This document shows positions 42,032 through 52,711 of a stretch of 52,711 nucleotides of DNA, in pieces. The stretch lies in the NCBI GenBank assembly GCA_016218665.1, contig JACRDI010000041.1, positions 1-52,711 of the forward strand, in the 5' to 3' direction. The DNA comes from Desulfovibrio sp. GTDB lineage: Bacteria > Desulfobacterota > Desulfovibrionia > Desulfovibrionales > Desulfovibrionaceae. Every line of letters starts with the position of its first letter. Positions within the stretch are counted from its first letter, which is position 1. The notes beneath the pieces are model-generated. The model worked only from the letters and a program-made list of their open reading frames with translations. It did no database searches and was not told the DNA's origin. Made by a program: the position numbers and the translations under genes.

Positions 42032-42255
42032 GCATTGCTCCTTTGCGCCCGGCATTGATTCTCACCGCAGCTCTATAGGCATAGCCTTAAGGGTGTCTGC
42101 TTGTCCAGGGGAGGAGCCAGCGCCAGGAACGATTTCAGGCCATTCCCGCCGCAGGTGCGCAGGGGCGGTGGAGTGCCGCTTGCCCTGCAACAGCAACCGA
42201 TGGTACGCAAAGCATGACCTCTTTGTCACCACCCCGAACGACGGAGGCATTCTTC

Positions 42256-42762
42256 ATGCTGCGACGCATTCTCCAAACCCTTTTCGTCAGCATTGCACTC
42301 GCCGCGCCGGCTTCTCTCGCGCTGGCCCAAAGCCTGCCGCAGGACTGCCAGGAGGCCATGGAAGTGCGCAGCCCGCAGGCCCAGGTGGAGCTTTTCAGCC
42401 GCTGTCTGGACAGCGGAAGCCTGAGCGGCGCCACCAAGGCCACGACGCTCAAGCAGCGCGCCGTGGCCTACATGCATCTGGGCCAGCACCAGCGCGCCAT
42501 CGACGACGTGACCGAGGCCATGAAGATCAAGCCGGGCGATCCGGACGTGTACTATCTGCGCGGCCTGGCCAAGCGCGCCCTGGGCAAGCACCAGGAGGCC
42601 ATCGACGACAGCACCAGGGCCATCGGCATGGAGCCGAAGAACGCCGGCGCCTACGCCAACAGGGCGTTCTCCTACAAGGCGCTGGGCTACACCAGCCAGG
42701 CCAAGTCCGACGCGCGCAGGGCACTTGAGCTTGATCCCAGGGTCAAGGTGCCGTCGTTCTAA
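42256..42762 (+). CDS. Secreted TPR-repeat protein
   Basis: 168 residues. The signal peptide (about 1-24, ending ASLALA) is followed by a short N-terminal segment with two cysteines and three TPR units starting near residues 63, 97 and 131 (KQRAVAYMHLGQHQRAID, YYLRGLAKRALGKHQEAID, YANRAFSYKALGYTSQAKS). It is a periplasmic interaction protein; the partner is unknown. GGAGG lies about 7 bases before ATG 42256. The 119 bp after it, up to the response regulator stop, contain GC-rich inverted repeats but no terminator with a T run. Confidence 0.85.
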   Translation: MLRRILQTLFVSIALAAPASLALAQSLPQDCQEAMEVRSPQAQVELFSRCLDSGSLSGATKATTLKQRAVAYMHLGQHQRAIDDVTEAMKIKPGDPDVYYLRGLAKRALGKHQEAIDDSTRAIGMEPKNAGAYANRAFSYKALGYTSQAKSDARRALELDPRVKVPSF

Positions 42763-42881
42763 GGATGCGGGCCGCGTGTGCGGCGCGCGCGGAGGCTGGG
42801 GCCCGCCTGGAGCGTTCCGGGCGCGGGGCCCGGCAGGGCGCATTTGGACCCAGCGCATGAAGGCGGCTGGCTGAGCTTCCG

Positions 42882-44273
42882 CTAGCCATCGCGGTCGAAG
42901 CCGTGCTTCTTGAGCATCTGGTAGAGGTGCCCGCGGGAAAGGCCCGAGGTGCGGGCCGCCTCGGCGACGCTGGCGGTCGTGTCGAGCAGCCCCTTGAGGT
43001 AGGACTTCTCCATGGCGTCCTTGAACTCCCGATAGGATTGATACCGGCAGGAGGCGGGTCCGTCGGGGCAGGTCACCGGCGGGGGAGGGGCGTCCTTGTG
43101 CAGCCGGCTCCTGACCACGGCCATGCGGATGTTCAGGGGCAGGTGCCCGGCGAAGATCTTGGGCTCCCCGCGGGAGGCGATGAAGGCCCGCTCCATGGCG
43201 TTGTAAAGCTCGCGGACATTGCCGGGCCAGTCGTGGCGCATGGCCGCCTCTATCAAATCGTCCGAGACCGACTTGCCGCAGGCGTCGTAGCGGCCGCACA
43301 AGGTTTCCATGAAATACTGGCACAGCAGGGGGATGTCCTCCTTGCGCTCGCGCAGGGGGGGCAGCGTGATGGTGATGCCGTTCAGCCGGTAGAGCAGGTC
43401 CGTGCGGAAGAGATCCAGCGAGGCCATTTCCAGGAGATTGCGGTTGGTGGCGGCAATGAGGCGGAAGTCGCTCGAAACCTCGTTCCTGCCGCCTATGGGG
43501 CGGAAGGACCTGGTCTCCAGCACCCGCAGGAAGGAACGCTGCAGGGCCAGCGGCAGCTCCCCCACCTCGTCGAGGAACAGCGTGCCCCCGTGGGCCAGGC
43601 GCACCACGCCGTCGCGGTCGCGGTCGGCCCCGGTGAAGGAGCCCTTCGTGTGGCCGAAGAGCTGGCTCTCCAGCAGCGACTCCGTGGCTGCGGCGCAGTC
43701 CATGGTCACCAGGGGCGTGGCCGCGCGGGCGCTGGCCTCGTGTATGGCCTGGGCGAAGACCTCCTTGCCGGTGCCGGTCTCTCCCCGCAGCAGCACGGGA
43801 ATATCGCTCGCCGCGGCCTGGGCGGCCATGTTGAGACAGTTCAGCAGTTCCGGGCTTGCGCCGACGATGCTGCGCAGCTTCAGCATCCCGCTGGAGGAAG
43901 AGCGCCGCTGCTGACGGAAGGCCACCACCCTGTTGAGGATCAGTTGCAGGTTCTCCAAAGACAAGGGCTTGGTGAGGAAGTCCCAGGCCCCGTGGCGCAA
44001 CGCCAGGTCGGCGCCTTCCGGGTCGCCGTGGCCGGTGACGATGACGATTTCCGGGGCCCCGGGGAGGCTCTTGATCTGTGGGATGTGATCCAGGCCGTTG
44101 CCGTCGGGCAGCAGCAGGTCCAGGAAGACCACGTCGCAGGAATTGCTGCGGCACAGGGCGAGGCCCTCGGCGAGGGTGGAGGTGGCCAGTGCGGCGTGCC
44201 CAAGCTCGGAGGCCGTGGTGGTGATCAGCCGCTGCACCAGCGGATCGTCGTCGAGCACGAGAACCAGCGCCAT
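42882..44273 (-). CDS. Sigma54-dependent response regulator, NtrC family
   Basis: 463 residues. Receiver: acidic pair D8/D9, phospho-site D52 in VVFLDLLLPDGNG, K in FLTKPLS. AAA+ domain (about 130-370): Walker A GETGTGKE, the sigma54-contact loop reads GSFTGA instead of GAFTGA, Walker B GTLFLDEVGELP, and R-finger region LFRTDLLYRL. C-terminal Fis-type helix-turn-helix: ASVAEAARTSGLSRGHLYQMLKKH. It starts 1 bp after the kinase stop, so it is the kinase partner. The gene ends the nap-side transcript, and sigma54 promoters lie upstream of napC and nrfH, its likely targets. Confidence 0.93.
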   Translation of the reverse strand: MALVLVLDDDPLVQRLITTTASELGHAALATSTLAEGLALCRSNSCDVVFLDLLLPDGNGLDHIPQIKSLPGAPEIVIVTGHGDPEGADLALRHGAWDFLTKPLSLENLQLILNRVVAFRQQRRSSSSGMLKLRSIVGASPELLNCLNMAAQAAASDIPVLLRGETGTGKEVFAQAIHEASARAATPLVTMDCAAATESLLESQLFGHTKGSFTGADRDRDGVVRLAHGGTLFLDEVGELPLALQRSFLRVLETRSFRPIGGRNEVSSDFRLIAATNRNLLEMASLDLFRTDLLYRLNGITITLPPLRERKEDIPLLCQYFMETLCGRYDACGKSVSDDLIEAAMRHDWPGNVRELYNAMERAFIASRGEPKIFAGHLPLNIRMAVVRSRLHKDAPPPPVTCPDGPASCRYQSYREFKDAMEKSYLKGLLDTTASVAEAARTSGLSRGHLYQMLKKHGFDRDG

Positions 44274-44274
44274 G

Positions 44275-46503
44275 TCATACCGCCTTTATGAGGCCGCGCA
44301 GGGCCTGACAGGTCAGTTCCAGGGTTTTGTGCAGCGCGGCGCGCCGCCTCTCGCTGGGGAGCTTGCGCTCCTTGGAGAGCTGTTCAAGCCGCGCTGCGGT
44401 ATCGCGCAGGGGCAGGGCCCCCAGGGCTGCCGCGCCGGACTTGAGGGTGTGCGCGATCCTGGTGGTTTCGCTGAAGTCGGCGTCCCGCGCCGCCGCGTCG
44501 AATCGTTCGGCCAGGCCCGGAGCGCTGCTGAGAAACTCCATGGCCAGCATGCGGTAGAGGTCCTGTCGGCCGCCCAGACGCTTCAGGCTTTCGCCGGTCT
44601 CGATGAGCGCCTCTGCGCCGGGCGCGTTCGCGCCTGGGGCCTCCTGCTCCATGGCCAGGGTCTCACGGATGGCCCGGCGCAGGGCAGCCAGGTCGATGGG
44701 CTTCGTCACCACGCCGGAGATGTCGTCGAGCGGCATGGCCTCGGCGTCCTCTGGCGTGGCGAAAGCCGTGAGGATCAGGATGGGAGTGCGCCGGCGCCCA
44801 AGGTCCGTCTCCAGGGTCCGTATGCGGCGGGCCAGCTCCAGTCCGTCCATTTCCGGCATCTGCAGGTCCAGCAGCAGCAGGTCCAGCGGACTCTGGGGGA
44901 ATATTTCCAGCGCCTCGCGGCTGCTGGTGGCCAGCCGCACCTCCGCCCCGTCCTCCCTCAAGATGTCGTCGAGCAGGATCAGGTTGGCGCGCTGGTCGTC
45001 CACGACCAGAAGGCGCAGCCCGGCAAGGCTCTCCTGCGCGGGGGCCGTGGCCTCCCCGGCGGGGGGAGCCTCTTCCCGGACAGGCGGTGCCTCGGCCAGC
45101 AGCGCGGTGAAGGTGCTGCCCTGTCCGGGCGCGCTGTCGACCCGGATGCCGCCGCCCATCATCACGGCCAGTTGCCGGGCGATGGACAGGCCGAGGCCGG
45201 AGCCCGCGTGGCGGCGCGCCAGGCTGTCGTCCACCTGGCAGAAGCACTCGAAGATGCGGCTCTGCTCCTCGGCCGCGATGCCCACCCCGGTGTCGATGAC
45301 GGCGGTGCGCAGCACAAGCCTTCCCTGCGGGCCGGGCATGGCGTCCACCGTCACGCGCACCGAGCCATGGTCGGTGAACTTGACGGCGTTGCCGAGCAGA
45401 TTGGCCAGCACCTGGCGGAAGCGGAAGGCGTCGCCCAGCAGGCGGGCCGGCACGGAGTCCATGACTTCGTGGCTGAAGGCCAGGCCCTTTTCCTCGGCGG
45501 CGAAGGCGAAGATCAGGCCGGTCTGCTCCACGGCCTTGCGCACGTCGAAGGGCTGGTTCTTGAGCTCCAGGCGGCTGGATTCCAGGCGCGCGTAGTCCAG
45601 GATGTCGCCCACGACCTCAAGCAGGGCCCCGGCCGAGTGCGTGATGAGCCGGGCATAGCCAGCGGCCTTGGGGCTCAGATCCTCGCGCACCAGCCGGTCG
45701 GACAGGCCGATGATGCCGGTGAGCGGCGTGCGCATGTCGTGGCTCATGTTCGCCAGGAAGCGGCTGCGCATCTGGCTCAGGGCCACGGCCTTCTCGCGGC
45801 GGCGGTTGATCTCGAAGGTGGAGCCGACGATGCCCACCAGCCCGACGAACCAGATGATTCCATAGGCAACGGCCTGCTGGCGCTGGTTGTAAACGCGCGG
45901 GAGGATGAGCGGTCCGGCCGGGGCCGAGACGCTGATGCCGCCCCTGATGGAGCCCACGGCGTCCTTGGGGTGGCAGCGGCGGCAACTCGCCTCGGTTATC
46001 AGCGGGGCCATGTACCGGAACTGGTCCTGCCCGGGCGCGCCGGGCACGGCCTCGAAGTAGTCTCCGTCGGCCTGCAGGACGGACAAGGCCTCGCTCTCCC
46101 ATTTGTCGGGCGCGTTTTCCGGCCGAATGGGCATGAGGCTGGTGATGTGGAAGCGGATGCCGACGTCCTGCGCGATGACCTTGGCGATCTCGGCGATCTG
46201 GCGGGTCATGTAGGCGGGGTTGATGCGCACCAGGGTCTCGCCCGTTTCGGTCTTGAGGATGCGCTCGCCCGAGGGCAGGTGGGGGTTGGGCTCGGCGTTG
46301 GGGCCCACGGGAACGAAGACCCCGCCGTGGGCGGAGTTCCAGGCCCGCGCGGCCACGATCTGCAGGAAGAAGGAACGGGCCTGGTATTCCGCCAGCTCCT
46401 TGACGTGGCGGTTCTCCCCGGCGAAATTCCACAGAAAGAGCGCCAGCAGAAGCAGAGTCCAGAACAACCCCACGATCATCGGGATGATGAACAGTCGTTT
46501 CAT
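44275..46503 (-). CDS. Haem-c hybrid sensor kinase: DUF3365 (Tll0287-like) sensor, HisKA, HATPase, receiver, HPt
   Basis: 742 residues. One N-terminal helix (about 4-26) and a second at 213-232 bracket a periplasmic DUF3365 domain (ARAWNSAHGGVFV, RINPAYMTRQIAE, FHITSL). It has a haem c motif C174-R-R-C177-H178 near its end. Kinase core: H255 in FLANMSHDMRTPLTG, ATPase boxes GNAVKFTD, DTGVGI, GSGLGLSIA. A receiver follows (LLLDLQMPEMDG), then an HPt domain (IAHTLKSGAAALG). It forms a full phosphorelay with the adjacent regulator. A haem-based redox, NO or nitrite sense is likely but unproven. The ATG at 46503 lacks a good SD; 46542 is possible. Confidence 0.9.
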   Translation of the reverse strand: MKRLFIIPMIVGLFWTLLLLALFLWNFAGENRHVKELAEYQARSFFLQIVAARAWNSAHGGVFVPVGPNAEPNPHLPSGERILKTETGETLVRINPAYMTRQIAEIAKVIAQDVGIRFHITSLMPIRPENAPDKWESEALSVLQADGDYFEAVPGAPGQDQFRYMAPLITEASCRRCHPKDAVGSIRGGISVSAPAGPLILPRVYNQRQQAVAYGIIWFVGLVGIVGSTFEINRRREKAVALSQMRSRFLANMSHDMRTPLTGIIGLSDRLVREDLSPKAAGYARLITHSAGALLEVVGDILDYARLESSRLELKNQPFDVRKAVEQTGLIFAFAAEEKGLAFSHEVMDSVPARLLGDAFRFRQVLANLLGNAVKFTDHGSVRVTVDAMPGPQGRLVLRTAVIDTGVGIAAEEQSRIFECFCQVDDSLARRHAGSGLGLSIARQLAVMMGGGIRVDSAPGQGSTFTALLAEAPPVREEAPPAGEATAPAQESLAGLRLLVVDDQRANLILLDDILREDGAEVRLATSSREALEIFPQSPLDLLLLDLQMPEMDGLELARRIRTLETDLGRRRTPILILTAFATPEDAEAMPLDDISGVVTKPIDLAALRRAIRETLAMEQEAPGANAPGAEALIETGESLKRLGGRQDLYRMLAMEFLSSAPGLAERFDAAARDADFSETTRIAHTLKSGAAALGALPLRDTAARLEQLSKERKLPSERRRAALHKTLELTCQALRGLIKAV

Positions 46504-46574
46504 GTGCCCACCCCGGGGGCTCAGTGGACAGGTTGTGTGCATTTTATTTCACTGCCAATGTGGTAGGATATCGC

Positions 46575-47459
46575 TCATTCAGGCCGTTTGTCGAGCCCCC
46601 CGGCCTCGGGGCCGGGAAGGACCGCGTTCTGCGCGTCCGGGCGGCCCAGGCGAAAGCGCAGGGCTTGGCCCGGACGCAGGCACGCGGTGCGGCAGTCGCC
46701 GCAGTTGTTGCAGGCCAGGGGCAGGGTTTCCGGCCGCCGCGGGTCGAGCCCCAGGGAGCAGGCCGCCACGCACCGGCTTTGGCCCTTGGCGCAGGCGCAC
46801 CGTTCGGGGGCGTGCACCAGGCGCAGGCGCCAGGGGTTCAGGCGGGCCATGAGGTGCAGCAGCACGGACTGGGGGCAGGCGAAGCCGCACCACAGGCGTT
46901 TGCCGAGGCGCCATTCGGCGGCGAGCATCAGCACCGCGCCGCCGACGGGCCACAGAACACCGCCCAGCGCCACGTGTTGCCACAGGCGGGAATAGTAGGC
47001 CGGCATGGAGAGGAGGTTCAACAGGGGCGGGAGCCCGAAGACCGCCAGCAGGATCAGTCCCGCCAGCACCGCGCCGGCCCGGACGCGGAACCCCGCAGAG
47101 ACCGCCGTGTCCGCCAGCCGTCCCATCAGATGTCCCGACCTGCGCGACCGGGCGTGGACCAGTTCGGAAAGCAGGCCGTAGGGGCAGGCGTAGGAGCAGA
47201 ACACCGGCCCCAGGACAAGGGCCAATGCCAGGGCCAGGCCCGCGCCCAGGGCGACGCGCCCGGTGATGTCCCCGGCCGAGGCGAGCACCTGCACGGCCGC
47301 CAGAGGGTCGCCCAGGGGCAGGCCGAAGACGTCCATGGCCAGGAAGTTGCCGCTGACCCCGTGCAGGCCGAAGAGATTGGCGAAGGGCACGCCGGCCATG
47401 GCCAGGGCCACGCCGGTCTGCGACGCGCGCCGCCAGAAGGCGGGGCCGGGCCGGGTCAT
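46575..47459 (-). CDS. napH: NapH-like membrane iron-sulfur protein
   Basis: 294 residues with about four to five membrane helices. It carries the NapH/CcoG-type pair of CxxxCP motifs: FCSYACPYGLLSE and WCGFACPQSVLLH. Two ferredoxin-like cysteine groups follow near the C-terminus (CACAKGQSRCVAAC and CNNCGDCRTAC). It would carry electrons from quinol or with NapG towards the nitrate reductase. It starts with a 4-bp ATGA overlap with napG. The 71 bp to the kinase gene hold no terminator, so kinase and regulator may be on the nap transcript. Confidence 0.9.
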   Translation of the reverse strand: MTRPGPAFWRRASQTGVALAMAGVPFANLFGLHGVSGNFLAMDVFGLPLGDPLAAVQVLASAGDITGRVALGAGLALALALVLGPVFCSYACPYGLLSELVHARSRRSGHLMGRLADTAVSAGFRVRAGAVLAGLILLAVFGLPPLLNLLSMPAYYSRLWQHVALGGVLWPVGGAVLMLAAEWRLGKRLWCGFACPQSVLLHLMARLNPWRLRLVHAPERCACAKGQSRCVAACSLGLDPRRPETLPLACNNCGDCRTACLRPGQALRFRLGRPDAQNAVLPGPEAGGLDKRPE

Positions 47460-47962
47460 GCGCCGCCTCCGTCCCACCGGTCGCGGGCGGCCGCCAGGCG
47501 GGCCTTGGGAATGGTGAGGATGGCTTTGCGCGGACAGACGTTTTCGCACACGCCGCAGCCCACGCACGCCTCGGTGATGACCGGAAAGAGCCCCTTCTCC
47601 ATGACGATGGCCTGGTTCCGCAGGGGGCACTTCTCGTGGCAGGTCTTGCAGAAAATGCTGCCCTCGTAGGTGTAGCAGCGGCTCTTGTCGATGCGCGCGA
47701 TGCCCATGTCCGCACGGGCCATGGCCGTCACCGGCAGCAGGGCCTCGGTGGGGCAAACCGGCGGACAGCGCATGCACAGGTAGCAGGGCACCCTGCGCGG
47801 AGCTATGCGCGGCGTGCCGAAGGTCTCGGGGTTGAAGCCGGCCTCGAAGACAATGCTGCCGTAGGGGCATATCTGCCCGCACTGGCCGCACTGGATGCAG
47901 CGCTTCAGGAATTCCCGCTCGCCGCGCGCTCCGGGGGGGCGCAGCATCTGCTCATAGATCAT
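47456..47962 (-). CDS. napG: NapG-like polyferredoxin (four 4Fe-4S motifs)
   Basis: 168 residues with four cysteine clusters: CIQCGQCGQICPYG, CYLCMRCPPVCPTE, a split third starting CYTYEGSIFCKTCHEKCP, and CVGCGVCENVCP. The order and the adjacent NapH identify it as the electron-transfer partner. It has no Tat leader, unlike enterobacterial NapG, so it may work on the cytoplasmic side, closer to NapF. The single CxxCH in FCKTCHEKC is part of an iron-sulfur site, not a haem site. It lies 9 bp after napD. Confidence 0.88.
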   Translation of the reverse strand: MIYEQMLRPPGARGEREFLKRCIQCGQCGQICPYGSIVFEAGFNPETFGTPRIAPRRVPCYLCMRCPPVCPTEALLPVTAMARADMGIARIDKSRCYTYEGSIFCKTCHEKCPLRNQAIVMEKGLFPVITEACVGCGVCENVCPRKAILTIPKARLAAARDRWDGGGA

Positions 47963-47971
47963 GACGCGCCC

Positions 47972-48223
47972 TTACTTTGCGCCCTCCCCACCCAGTTCGT
48001 CCTCGATGTTGAGATAGGCCGTGGCCACCGAGAGCACCCCGGGAGTGGCCTTGAACTCGCGTTCCACGCGCTCAAGTTCCTTGGAGGGCCGCTCGATGAC
48101 CGCCACCAGACAGGGGGGGGACTCCCAGGGCAGGATGGTGGCATCCCGCCGCTGGGAAAGGCTCGCCTTGACCCCGGCAAGATCCTGCCGGGTCGTGTGG
48201 ATGATGAAGCTTGCGATGGCCAT
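47972..48223 (-). CDS. napD: NapD chaperone
   Basis: 83 residues, NapD family: MAIASFIIHTTRQDLAGVKA, then CLVAVIERPSKELERVE and GVLSVATAYLNIEDE. It binds the Tat leader of NapA and prevents early export. GGAGG precedes the ATG at 48223, 17 bp after napA. Confidence 0.92.
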   Translation of the reverse strand: MAIASFIIHTTRQDLAGVKASLSQRRDATILPWESPPCLVAVIERPSKELERVEREFKATPGVLSVATAYLNIEDELGGEGAK

Positions 48224-50525: not shown

Positions 50526-51020
50526 CTACTCGGCCTTTTGCTTGGACACGGACTTGGCGTAGGCGTCGTGGTGCAGGGAGTTGGTGTGAAAACCGTGGCA
50601 GCTGTTGCAGCCCTCGCGCACACCGAACTTCGTGTACATGCGTTCAATGGCCGGAGCATGGCAGCGCTGGCAGGCAACCTTCGCGTCGGGCTTCGCCGAG
50701 AAGGGCACCGCTCCCTTGCCGTCCGGCAACCCGTGGCAGACGTAGCATTTCACCAACAGCATGCCGTGCTTGCTCTCGTTCCAGTCCTGGGCAATCTTGG
50801 GGGTGACCTTCTTGTGGCAGGCGTAGCAGTCGCTTTGGGCATCGGTCACCTCGCCGTGCTGGGCCTGGCCCCAGGTGCAGCGCGTGCCGCTGAACGCCAG
50901 GGAGAGATAGGAGAAGTAGGCCAGCGCCAGCACGGCCAGGGCCATCGGAATGATGAGCCACTTGCGTCCCAGGGTGATCTGATTGAGAGTGTCTGTGAAA
51001 AACTGCCGTAGTTTTTTCAT
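50526..51020 (-). CDS. napM: NapM, membrane-anchored tetrahaem cytochrome c
   Basis: 164 residues. The N-terminal helix (about 17-41) acts as anchor, then four CxxCH sites: CYACH, CYVCH, CQRCH, CNSCH. By position between napC and napA it is the NapM of the Desulfovibrio-type nap operon and probably passes electrons to NapA in place of NapB. ATG 51020 is chosen: GAGGGA lies five bases upstream. ATG 51038 overlaps the napC stop but sits too close to its SD. Confidence 0.9.
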   Translation of the reverse strand: MKKLRQFFTDTLNQITLGRKWLIIPMALAVLALAYFSYLSLAFSGTRCTWGQAQHGEVTDAQSDCYACHKKVTPKIAQDWNESKHGMLLVKCYVCHGLPDGKGAVPFSAKPDAKVACQRCHAPAIERMYTKFGVREGCNSCHGFHTNSLHHDAYAKSVSKQKAE

Positions 51021-51034
51021 CGGGTTCCCTCGTA

Positions 51035-51595
51035 TCATTCCCCTTCCGGGGGCAGTTTGGCGGCAAAGGCGGCGTTGACCGCGTAGCGACGATCGAACTT
51101 GGGCAGATGAGCCATGTTGCTATGGCAGCCCGCGCAGGTCCGGCGTCCCTTGCCGTCCTTGCCCAGCCACGCCTCGTGCGCCTTCTTCCCTTCCGGACTG
51201 ATGCTCTTGCCCTTGGCGGTCAGCATGAGATCCTGGTGGCACTGCCGGCAGTTGTCGTCCGAGACAAAGCGCCGGGCCACCAGCTGCATGTTGCGCCTGT
51301 CCAAATCCTTGGTGTCGCCGAAGAAGTGGACGGCCAGATCGCGGACGCCGAGATAGGACTTCACCACAAGGTAGTCGATCCCGGCGCGGCGCGGTATGTG
51401 GCACTGTTCGCAGGTGATTGGCTTCTTGTCCTTGTCTACCGCATGCGATGAGCGTTTCAGCTCAAATTCATACCTCTTCATTTCATGGCAGGACAGGCAG
51501 AACTCGTTGCTGGACGTCTGTCCAACAGCGTAGCTCGATGCGAAAAGCGCCGCACATGCAATTCCGATTGTCAGGATGAGATGTGGTAGTTTCAT
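51035..51595 (-). CDS. napC: NapC/NirT-family tetrahaem quinol dehydrogenase
   Basis: 186 residues. One membrane anchor (about 3-24), then four haem sites: CLSCH, CEQCH, CRQCH, CAGCH. The spacing and the start FCLSCHEMKRYEFELKRSSH are those of the NapC/NrfH group. It oxidises menaquinol and feeds NapM/NapA. The ATG at 51595 is first in the operon and lies about 45 nt downstream of the predicted sigma54 start site. The SD is weak, in the region AAAGCATGG. A longer frame upstream crosses the promoter region and is not credible. Confidence 0.92.
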   Translation of the reverse strand: MKLPHLILTIGIACAALFASSYAVGQTSSNEFCLSCHEMKRYEFELKRSSHAVDKDKKPITCEQCHIPRRAGIDYLVVKSYLGVRDLAVHFFGDTKDLDRRNMQLVARRFVSDDNCRQCHQDLMLTAKGKSISPEGKKAHEAWLGKDGKGRRTCAGCHSNMAHLPKFDRRYAVNAAFAAKLPPEGE

Positions 51596-51650
51596 ACATG
51601 CACCATGCTTTTCTTGACGGAATGGATGAATGCGCAGTGGCTCAAGAAAC

Positions 51651-51666
51651 AGCAAGACACATGCCA
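51651..51666 (-). promoter_or_regulatory. Sigma54 (-24/-12) promoter of the nap operon
   Basis: Minus strand TGGCATGTGTCTTGCT matches TGGCAYRNNNNTTGCW at every fixed position, with the -24 GG and -12 GC ten bases apart. The start would be near 51640. A 10-bp palindrome GCAAATTTGC (51667-51676) lies next to it. Confidence 0.8.
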
Positions 51667-51740
51667 GCAAATTTGCACAAGAAAAACATATGGTTTTCGA
51701 ATCATTCTGATTTGGAGAGCGTAGACGGTGTCTGAAATTC

Positions 51741-51808
51741 ATGACTGCGGTCATAAAAAACAGGCAAAGTCATGAAAAGCGAACAGTGCTCAAGGCAATT
51801 TTCTTGCC
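51741..51808. promoter_or_regulatory. Candidate activator (enhancer) sites in the 385-bp napC/nrfH gap
   Basis: ATGAC-TGCG-GTCAT (51741-51754) and GGCAA-TTTTC-TTGCC (51794-51808) are dyads 100-170 bp upstream of both predicted sigma54 starts, the usual distance for NtrC-type binding. The gap is AT-rich for this genome and holds no gene. Confidence 0.45.
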
Positions 51809-51894
51809 GTGCAAGCTGGTACGCATGTCTGTGCGTAGCCGGAAAGCCCAGCAAAACGGCCGAAAAAGCCCAAGAGCAAGGCACAGCGTATTGA

Positions 51895-51910
51895 TGGTTT
51901 GGCTTTTGCA
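51895..51910 (+). promoter_or_regulatory. Candidate sigma54 promoter of nrfHA
   Basis: TGGTTTGGCTTTTGCA keeps GG and GC ten bases apart and a perfect TTGCA; two mismatches lie in the -24 block. The start would be near 51921, 60 bases before nrfH. Confidence 0.6.
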
Positions 51911-51980
51911 GTCCACCACGGAACCTGGGACAGGCAAGGGCATGGGCCTTCCCGTCAACGCACATCAAGGCGGTGGGTGG

Positions 51981-52442
51981 ATGAGTGAAGAAAAACCAAG
52001 AAGACTGAAGTACGCTCTGGCTGGGGTCGCGTTGGCGCTCGCTGTGGCGCTCTTCGTGCTGCTGGGGCCGCCGCAGCTCCTGGCGAAGAGCGAGACGCCG
52101 GCCTTCTGCGCGTCCTGCCACATCCATGAGTCGCAATACGAGGCCTGGTTTCAGCAGGGGGCGCACCGCAGGCTGGCCTGCGTGGACTGCCACCTGCCCA
52201 ACGACAACTCGGCGTCGCACTACACCTGGAAATCCATCGACGGCATGAAGGATCTCGTGCTGTTCAATGCCGGGCGCGTGCCGGACGACATCCGCATCAC
52301 CGAGCGCGGCCGCAAGGTGGTGCAGGCCAACTGCATCCGCTGCCACGAGGGCGCGGTGGAGATGATCGACCAGGACCGCAGCTGCACGGATTGCCACAGG
52401 CGGCAGCTCCACAAGAACAGCAGCGCCATGGAGACCCTGTAG
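51981..52442 (+). CDS. nrfH: NrfH, tetrahaem quinol dehydrogenase of nitrite reductase
   Basis: 153 residues, near the Desulfovibrio NrfH length. N-terminal anchor helix (about 10-32), then four haem sites: CASCH, CVDCH, CIRCH, CTDCH. FCASCHIHESQYEAWFQQGAH and the lysine/histidine-rich stretch WKSIDGMKDLVLFN follow the NrfH plan. It passes menaquinol electrons to NrfA, encoded 67 bp downstream. ATG 51981 is chosen by family start; the SD (GGTGGGTGG) is weak. It is divergent from nap. Confidence 0.93.
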   Translation: MSEEKPRRLKYALAGVALALAVALFVLLGPPQLLAKSETPAFCASCHIHESQYEAWFQQGAHRRLACVDCHLPNDNSASHYTWKSIDGMKDLVLFNAGRVPDDIRITERGRKVVQANCIRCHEGAVEMIDQDRSCTDCHRRQLHKNSSAMETL

Positions 52443-52509
52443 CAGGCTTGCGCCATTGCGCAGGTATTATCCCCAGAGCTGGTAACGTTTTCCCACGGAG
52501 GAGGAAGTG

Positions 52510-52711
52510 ATGGCGAAGAAGAAGAGAATCCTGTTCATCGTCGGCGTGGCCCTGGCGCTGGCCTATCTCATCATCCCTTACGGCTGCGCGCCCGGCAAGC
52601 CGGAGATGGTGAAAACCGTGCAGATTCCAGACAACGAGATCGACCCCGAGCTGTGGGGCAAGGCCTATCCTGAAGAGTACGAGTCCTGGAAGAAGACCGA
52701 GCAGCCCGAAC
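52510..52711 (+). CDS. nrfA: Cytochrome c nitrite reductase NrfA (partial, cut by the window end)
   Basis: The first 67 residues only. A leader with hydrophobic segment (about 6-23) ends in PYGCAPG, a possible lipobox. ELWGKAYPEEYESWKKTEQP is the N-terminal signature of NrfA enzymes. The catalytic CxxCK and haem sites lie outside the window. GGAGGAGG is 5-6 bases before the ATG at 52510. By order it forms an operon with nrfH and would reduce nitrite to ammonium. Confidence 0.9.
   Translation, partial: MAKKKRILFIVGVALALAYLIIPYGCAPGKPEMVKTVQIPDNEIDPELWGKAYPEEYESWKKTEQPE

What the first reader, a model, noticed from the sequence alone, without database searches (positions are those of the whole stretch)
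51596..51980. Divergent sigma54 promoters link nap and nrf to the NtrC-type regulator in the same locus
The minus strand carries an exact sigma54 consensus (51651-51666) before napC, and the plus strand a good candidate (51895-51910) before nrfH, with dyads between them at enhancer distance. The NtrC-family regulator and its haem kinase sit at the far end of the nap side. This would be a self-contained nitrate/nitrite respiration circuit in which one activator drives both halves of the pathway.
Basis: partly seen in the sequence, partly recalled or inferred. Interest (0 to 1): 0.7.

Follow-up and report, generated by a model that had tools for sequence, protein, structure and literature searches.

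The report
One enhancer, two nitrate-respiration operons
In a Desulfovibrio-like bacterium the genes for reducing nitrate and for reducing the resulting nitrite point away from each other across a 385-base gap holding two sigma-54-type promoter sequences and three operator-like sequences, an arrangement kept in three genera and predicted to let one regulator, encoded in the same locus, switch on the whole nitrate-to-ammonium pathway at once.

Summary
The nap-side sequence TGGCATGTGTCTTGCT (51651-51666, minus) is the best sigma54-type site in the window. The nrf-side sequence (51895-51910, plus) is weak by consensus, but its odd form TGGTTTGN3TTTGCA recurs in four relatives. The dyads are three tandem GTC-N10-GAC-like operators (51730-51784): the three best matches in 52.7 kb to published LurR/NrfR sites, in an array found once in the assembly. 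Five genomes of three genera keep this plan, with 20/19-bp operator spacing and nearly fixed distances to both promoters. The NtrC-type regulator shares a clade with other nap- or nrf-linked regulators and a Nitratidesulfovibrio vulgaris protein, probably NrfR (DVU0621); the haem-motif kinase recurs too. NrfS-NrfR control of nap and nrf was already proposed for D. desulfuricans, where the operons are unlinked; new is the linked form sharing one array. The locus looks acquired (14 of 14 other genomes of the genus searched lack napC), and its nrfHA resembles the genome's second copy, whose upstream lacks such sites. Against: three of eight nap loci with a linked regulator lack a paired array, and rpoN is missing from this 84%-complete assembly.

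The parts
51651..51666 (-). nap-side sigma54-type promoter TGGCATGTGTCTTGCT (-24/-12)
   Evidence: rank 1 in window; TGGCATGTCTCTTGCT in G285-G287, degenerate in G082
51895..51910 (+). nrf-side sigma54-type promoter TGGTTTGGCTTTTGCA
   Evidence: rank 3 in window; same odd -24 box in all five genomes compared
51730..51745 (.). operator 1, GTCTGAAATTCATGAC
   Evidence: GTCAT half-site
51750..51765 (.). operator 2, GTCATAAAAAACAGGC
   Evidence: GTCAT half-site
51769..51784 (.). operator 3, GTCATGAAAAGCGAAC
   Evidence: GTCAT half-site
51035..51595 (-). napC-type NapC/NirT cytochrome, first gene of the nap side
   Evidence: PF03264 above cut-off; NCBIfam NapC and NrfH models below cut-off
50526..51038 (-). 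napM-like small multihaem cytochrome
   Evidence: cytochrome c7/c3 matches below cut-off; position as in napCMADGH of PMC5701242
48241..50499 (-). napA
   Evidence: PF00384; best PDB hits periplasmic nitrate reductase 2jio/2jim
47972..48223 (-). napD (small; start inferred)
   Evidence: position, and homologues at the same place in relatives; not scanned by profile
47456..47962 (-). napG-like ferredoxin
   Evidence: NapG model hit below cut-off
46575..47459 (-). napH-like ferredoxin (start inferred)
   Evidence: NapH model hit below cut-off
44275..46542 (-). hybrid histidine kinase, Tll0287-like sensor with CRRCH motif, HisKA, HATPase, receiver, Hpt (NrfS-like)
   Evidence: homologues suggest a start near 46503
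42882..44273 (-). NtrC-type response regulator, REC-AAA+ (GSFTGA loop)-HTH-like end (NrfR-type)
51981..52442 (+). nrfH
   Evidence: TIGR03153 above cut-off
52510..52711 (+). nrfA, 5' part only (window and contig end)
   Evidence: 98.5% aa identity over 67 residues to the second nrfA of the genome
51961..51961 (.). approximate left end of homology to the genome's other nrfHA (91% DNA identity from here on)

Best explanation
The 385-bp gap holds two divergent sigma54-type promoter sequences with one array of three GTC-N10-GAC-like operators between them, and the NrfR-type regulator encoded at the far end of the nap side would bind that array and likely activate both promoters. Likely steps: the haem-motif sensor kinase (NrfS-like) is predicted to sense nitrite or nitrate, or a product of them, outside the membrane and to phosphorylate the regulator; the regulator would form an oligomer on the three operators, about 100-140 bp upstream of the predicted nap start and 145-185 bp upstream of the predicted nrf start; by DNA looping it would open RNA polymerase-sigma54 at either promoter, giving NapA (nitrate to nitrite) and NrfHA (nitrite to ammonium) together so that nitrite does not pile up. 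Because kinase and regulator genes follow napH closely on the same strand, nap transcription would probably also raise the regulator (positive feedback). Shown by sequence: sites, geometry, their conservation, gene order, clade membership. Inferred: binding, sigma54 dependence, signal, feedback.
For: Three operators are ranks 1-3 of the window for a matrix from five published LurR/NrfR sites; 0 of 1000 gap shuffles reach the third score. The array pattern occurs once in the assembly. Five gaps from three genera keep array spacing 20/19, the nap promoter (fits TGGCAYRN4TTGCW in 4 of 5) and the odd nrf promoter (5 of 5); 45 of 80 feature columns are invariant against 50 of 281 elsewhere in the gap (columns are not independent). 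Operator centres lie 98-140 bp from the predicted nap start in all five; 156-196 bp from the predicted nrf start in four, and 11-12 bp (about one helical turn) nearer in the window. Over the napC upstream regions of 47 genomes (of the 64 with NapC) a strong sigma54 site and a paired array occur together (19 both, 1 site only, 5 array only, 22 neither; p=1.2e-7, related sequences included); random pieces have an array in 32 of 1880. Regulator clade 100/99; P0027 finds only the window regulator in this genome at E<=1e-142, five candidates scored. A CxxCH motif is in 14 of 19 kinase hits. No sigma70-like site in the gap at the scan's threshold, 0.4 expected.
Against: No wet-lab data for this organism. 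The nrf-side -24 box is far from consensus. In G082 the nap-side site is degenerate (11.0 bits, CGGCACGGATTTTGAT). Of 8 fetched loci with napC and a linked NrfR-type regulator, 3 (L086, L088, L220) have no paired array before napC by the criterion. rpoN (PF04552) was not found in the 84%-complete assembly, although 12 of 12 relatives have it. The regulator has GSFTGA rather than GAFTGA. Divergent nap|nrf in three g40 genomes (L226, L227, L234) has neither a strong sigma54 site nor an array, only single operator-like matches, so divergence alone does not imply this control. The matrix comes from LurR sites that NrfR also binds, and this genome has a LurR-like regulator. A weak sigma70-like site lies before the kinase gene, so the feedback link is uncertain.
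Confidence: 0.8

Rival explanations
1. The LurR-type lactate regulator of the same genome, whose published relative recognises nearly the same site as NrfR, is the main or a second activator at this array, so that nap and nrf follow carbon supply.
For: NrfR and LurR bind the same por sites in vitro (PMC6456213, passages). The genome has a second regulator (G000:C12, L130) outside the NrfR-type clade, near an Fe-S protein gene that I take, from its domains, for a lactate/glycolate dehydrogenase subunit, and flanked by GTCCG-N6-CGGAC sites and a sigma54-type site.
Against: All 15 operators of the five nap|nrf gaps carry a GTCAT or GTCAG half-site; none of the 5 published and 3 local LurR-type sites does (a contrast seen after the fact). 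Arrays lie beside NrfR-type regulators in several nap or nrf loci.
Confidence: 0.08
2. Only the nap promoter is sigma54-dependent and under this array; nrfHA is read from an unrelated, perhaps constitutive, promoter, and the TGGTTTG site is a relic.
For: The -24 box is off consensus. The genome's other nrfHA and those of 8 relatives in the genus show no sigma54 site above 9 bits upstream, so this enzyme type seems to be expressed without sigma54 elsewhere.
Against: The odd site is kept in five genomes of three genera at a nearly fixed distance from the array. No sigma70-like site was found in the gap.
Confidence: 0.15
3. Control is by an HcpR1/CRP-like regulator, as HcpR1 binding suggests for D. 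desulfuricans nap, and the sigma54-like sites are fortuitous.
For: HcpR1 binds the napC upstream region in D. desulfuricans (PMC5701242, passages).
Against: Best match in the gap to TGTGA-N6-TCACA has 3 mismatches and overlaps operator 1.
Confidence: 0.04

Closest known systems
NrfS-NrfR of Nitratidesulfovibrio (Desulfovibrio) vulgaris and D. desulfuricans
   Same: Sigma54-type response regulator, probably of the same clade; hybrid kinase beside it; operators of the LurR/NrfR type; nap and nrf co-control by NrfSR proposed for D. desulfuricans (PMC5701242, passages read).
   Different: There nap (Ddes_0614-0619) and nrfHA (Ddes_0081-0082) are separate loci; here they diverge from one gap with one operator array, and kinase and regulator follow napH.
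Divergent sigma54 type III secretion operons of D. vulgaris with regulator DVUA0100 (PMC4641369, passage read)
   Same: Two divergent sigma54 operons, a shared upstream region with a predicted regulator motif, the regulator gene inside one operon.
   Different: One-component regulator and another function.
FhlA control of hyc and hyp in Escherichia coli (recalled, no call)
   Same: One enhancer-binding protein serving two divergent sigma54 operons.
   Different: Formate-sensing, no kinase, no nitrate genes.
NarQP/NarXL control of nap and nrf in E. coli (PMC12285233, passages read)
   Same: Nitrate/nitrite two-component systems act on nap and nrf.
   Different: Sigma70-type promoters, unlinked operons and an unrelated regulator family (these three recalled).

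Membership tests
NrfR (response regulator of NrfS-NrfR) | REC - sigma54-interacting AAA+ - C-terminal DNA-binding domain | tested here: met
   PF00072, PF00158, lid PF25601; C-terminal end alignable with the other regulators, no separate HTH Pfam hit; loop is GSFTGA
NrfR (response regulator of NrfS-NrfR) | Same clade as the D. vulgaris NrfR | tested here: inconclusive
   Clade with N. vulgaris P0027 (100/99) and back-hit; that P0027 is DVU0621 rests on a contig length recalled as that of the Hildenborough chromosome and on gene order in relatives; its own locus could not be fetched
NrfR (response regulator of NrfS-NrfR) | Gene linked to nrfHA or nap | tested here: met
   window; L215, L217 and others
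NrfR (response regulator of NrfS-NrfR) | Recognises a 16-bp site close to the LurR motif | not testable with these tools
   sites present, binding not testable
NrfR (response regulator of NrfS-NrfR) | Nitrite-dependent activation | not testable with these tools
   needs cultures
sigma54 promoter | GG at -24 and GC at -12, ten bases between | tested here: met
   both sites
sigma54 promoter | Transcript start about 12-13 bp downstream, RpoN-dependent | not testable with these tools
   no transcript data
sigma54 promoter | RpoN present in the genome | tested here: inconclusive
   PF04552: 0 in this 84%-complete assembly, 12 of 12 relatives positive
LurR operator | Half-sites of LurR type (GTCCG, GTCTG and the like) without GTCAT/GTCAG | tested here: not met
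   GTCAT/GTCAG half-site in 15 of 15 operators of the five gaps against 0 of 8 LurR-type sites
HcpR1 site | TGTGA-N6-TCACA | tested here: not met
   best match in the gap 3 mismatches

The most novel reading that the evidence does not exclude
This is a portable, self-amplifying nitrate-to-ammonium switch. Sensor, regulator, nap and a three-operator enhancer travelled as one cassette into a genus that lacks nap, and on arrival a second copy of the host's own nrfHA was placed behind the cassette's nrf promoter, about 20 bp upstream of its start codon, in the slot where relatives keep another nrfHA. The cell then has one nitrite reductase copy under the switch and one outside it.
Probability: 0.45. 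Interest if true: 0.62.

Novelty: new variant of a known kind. Interest (0 to 1): 0.47.

Why it matters
Sulfate reducers meet nitrite as a poison, and how they keep its production and removal in step is open: for D. desulfuricans NrfSR control of nap and nrf is proposed from binding sites and expression, in the passages that I read (PMC5701242). Here the two halves share one short enhancer, so a single 55-bp mutation could test the whole proposal. The locus also gives five naturally varied versions of one enhancer between two promoters, with a one-helical-turn change, and a likely natural promoter capture.

Tried and rejected
HcpR1, FNR and IHF sites in the gap: no good match (best 3, 3 and 2 mismatches). 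Rfam families in 51500-52050: none at gathering score. Sigma70-like sites in the gap: none, with 0.4 expected. An apparent in-frame TAG in two regulators was the normal stop codon. The idea that the island is a binning error was rejected: the left part of the contig is collinear with genomes of the same genus up to about 42761. Divergent nap|nrf as such is not diagnostic: three g40 genomes have it without array or strong sigma54 site. Papers on linked nap-nrf sigma54 control: the listings showed none to me; that is no proof of absence, since most subscription papers are not held, and the NrfSR study cited as reference 15 in PMC6456213 did not appear.

Full report
Observation. The gap between napC (start 51595, minus) and nrfH (start 51981, plus) is 385 bp. 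The minus site is the best in the window; the plus site is third but off consensus in the -24 box. Loose consensus matches occur no more often than chance, so the plus site needed other evidence.

What the dyads are. PMC6456213 (passages read) prints five LurR sites and says that NrfR has a very similar 16-bp motif and binds the por sites. A matrix from these five puts three sites of the gap first, second and third among all positions of the window. They are tandem, 20 and 19 bp apart. No shuffle of 1000 reaches the third score; 22 reach the best. The array pattern is found once in the assembly, which is 84% complete.

Locus. On the minus strand follow napC, a napM-like cytochrome, napA, napD, and napG- and napH-like genes, then a hybrid kinase with a Tll0287-like sensor and a CRRCH motif, and a REC-AAA+ regulator. 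This is the napCMADGH order given for D. desulfuricans (PMC5701242, passages) with a two-component system added. The regulator's sigma54-contact loop is GSFTGA, as in 6 of the 21 regulators aligned; 13 have GAFTGA, 1 GAYTGA, 1 none found.

Relatives. In 288 genomes of the family, 64 have a NapC at E<=1e-28; I fetched the loci of 47 of them. Four besides the window, G082, G285, G286 and G287, have napC and nrfHA divergent with the same gap plan. The kinase and regulator lie beyond napH in G286 and G287; in G082 they lie at the edge of another contig, consistent with the same order; in G285 they are not on the contig. G286 and G287 are Solidesulfovibrio by matching contig lengths. The alignment of five gaps keeps the three operators, the nap promoter (degenerate in G082) and the odd nrf promoter; feature columns are invariant 45 of 80 against 50 of 281 elsewhere. 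Operator centres lie 98-140 bp from the predicted nap start in all five, and 156-196 bp from the predicted nrf start in four; in the window the latter distance is 11-12 bp shorter, about one turn.

Wider set. Of 47 napC upstream regions (NapC hits under 45% identity, regions under 150 bp and identical regions left out), 19 have both a strong sigma54 site and a paired array, 1 the site only, 5 the array only, 22 neither (p=1.2e-7; related sequences, so the number overstates). Random 420-bp pieces have an array in 32 of 1880. Against the reading: of 8 fetched loci with napC and a linked NrfR-type regulator, 3 (L086, L088, L220) have no paired array before napC, and three g40 genomes with divergent nap|nrf have neither a strong sigma54 site nor an array.

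Which regulator. P0027, named N. vulgaris, is 50% identical. Searched back, it finds only the window regulator in this genome at E<=1e-142, five candidates being scored. A tree of 46 regulators puts the window protein, P0027 and the regulators found beside nap or nrf together with a kinase in one clade of 29 (100/99), some of whose members have unknown neighbours; a LurR-like group that includes another protein of this genome lies outside, and so does L133, about 3 kb from a diverged second napC-like gene. The LurR-like protein of this genome lies near an Fe-S protein and has GTCCG-N6-CGGAC sites and a sigma54-type site around it. All 15 operators of the five gaps have a GTCAT or GTCAG half-site; 0 of 8 LurR-type sites do. 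This contrast was seen after the fact. That P0027 is DVU0621 is probable, not shown.

Origin. Four genomes of the genus match the contig in order over the 10-15 kb before the island, as far as they were fetched, with 2-4 kb extra before the TPR gene in two; in three the last match ends at 42756-42763, the end of that TPR gene, and in the fourth at 42047. The right end of the island is not on the contig. All 14 other genomes of the genus searched lack napC, six of them under 90% complete. The assembly has a second nrfHA (G000:C29). The window copy is 91% identical to it from 51961 on, and the first 67 residues of nrfA are 98.5% identical. In the nrfH tree the window copy groups with the genus' copies (92/91, five rows), not with the Solidesulfovibrio copies that occupy the same slot; deeper forks are unresolved. 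Upstream of the other copy and of the nrfH of 8 relatives in the genus no sigma54 site exceeds 9 bits; single operator-like matches of 9.3 to 12.9 bits occur in 5 of these 9, none in the other copy of this genome. I infer acquisition of the cassette and capture of a host-type nrfHA; the direction of transfer is not proven.

Mechanism. The regulator would sit on the array and serve both promoters by looping. Kinase and regulator follow napH closely (32 bp from the listed start, about 71 bp from the start suggested by homologues), so co-transcription and feedback are likely but open; a weak sigma70-like site lies there (1 found, 0.6 expected). The signal is not known; PMC5701242 favours nitrite for NrfS. 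A CxxCH motif is in 14 of 19 kinase hits; of the other five, three are cut copies of loci already counted (L238, L240, L241) and two are partial hits (L135, L222).

Prior art. PMC5701242 proposes NrfSR co-control of nap and nrf with sigma54 determinants, in unlinked loci. PMC3333781 maps DVU0621 to the nitrite reductase genes DVU0624-0625. PMC4641369 lists DVU0621 with the same genes and describes a comparable divergent pair for another function. PMC12285233 lists NrfS-NrfR as activating nap and nrf. I read passages only. So the control is a known kind and the shared-enhancer cassette is a variant.

Weak points. rpoN is not in the assembly; all binding and start sites are predicted; sigma54 weights are recalled.

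Noticed in passing
G000:C29:1-1914 (L075) and window 51961-52711: Second nrfHA in the genome; both contigs end inside nrfA, as if the near-identical genes broke the assembly. The two copies differ more in nrfH (82% aa) than at the start of nrfA (98.5%), which hints at gene conversion.
   Followed up: partly
G000:C12 about 131500-133100 (L130:5508-7091): LurR-like regulator with GTCCG-N6-CGGAC sites on both sides; this genome seems to hold both LurR- and NrfR-type regulators, a combination that PMC6456213 reports in few genomes besides D. vulgaris.
   Followed up: partly
L226, L227, L234: Divergent nap|nrf with a Dv-type nrfHA in g40 genomes, without strong sigma54 sites or operator array; a shared stretch like GTTCTTTTTTTCACAA suggests another regulator.
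   Followed up: no
L215:5604-7816: About 2.2 kb of extra DNA between napD and napA in the Solidesulfovibrio locus, contents not examined.
   Followed up: no
window 51793-51808: Window-specific dyad GGCAATTTTCTTGCC, itself sigma54-like on both strands (10.1 and 9.6 bits), not kept in the relatives aligned.
   Followed up: no
L086, L095, L228: Other nap-nrf linkages in which nrfHA lies upstream of napC on the same strand.
   Followed up: no
L130:1525-3329: GmrSD-type and HEPN (RiboL-PSP) genes side by side near the LurR-like gene, possibly a defence locus.
   Followed up: no
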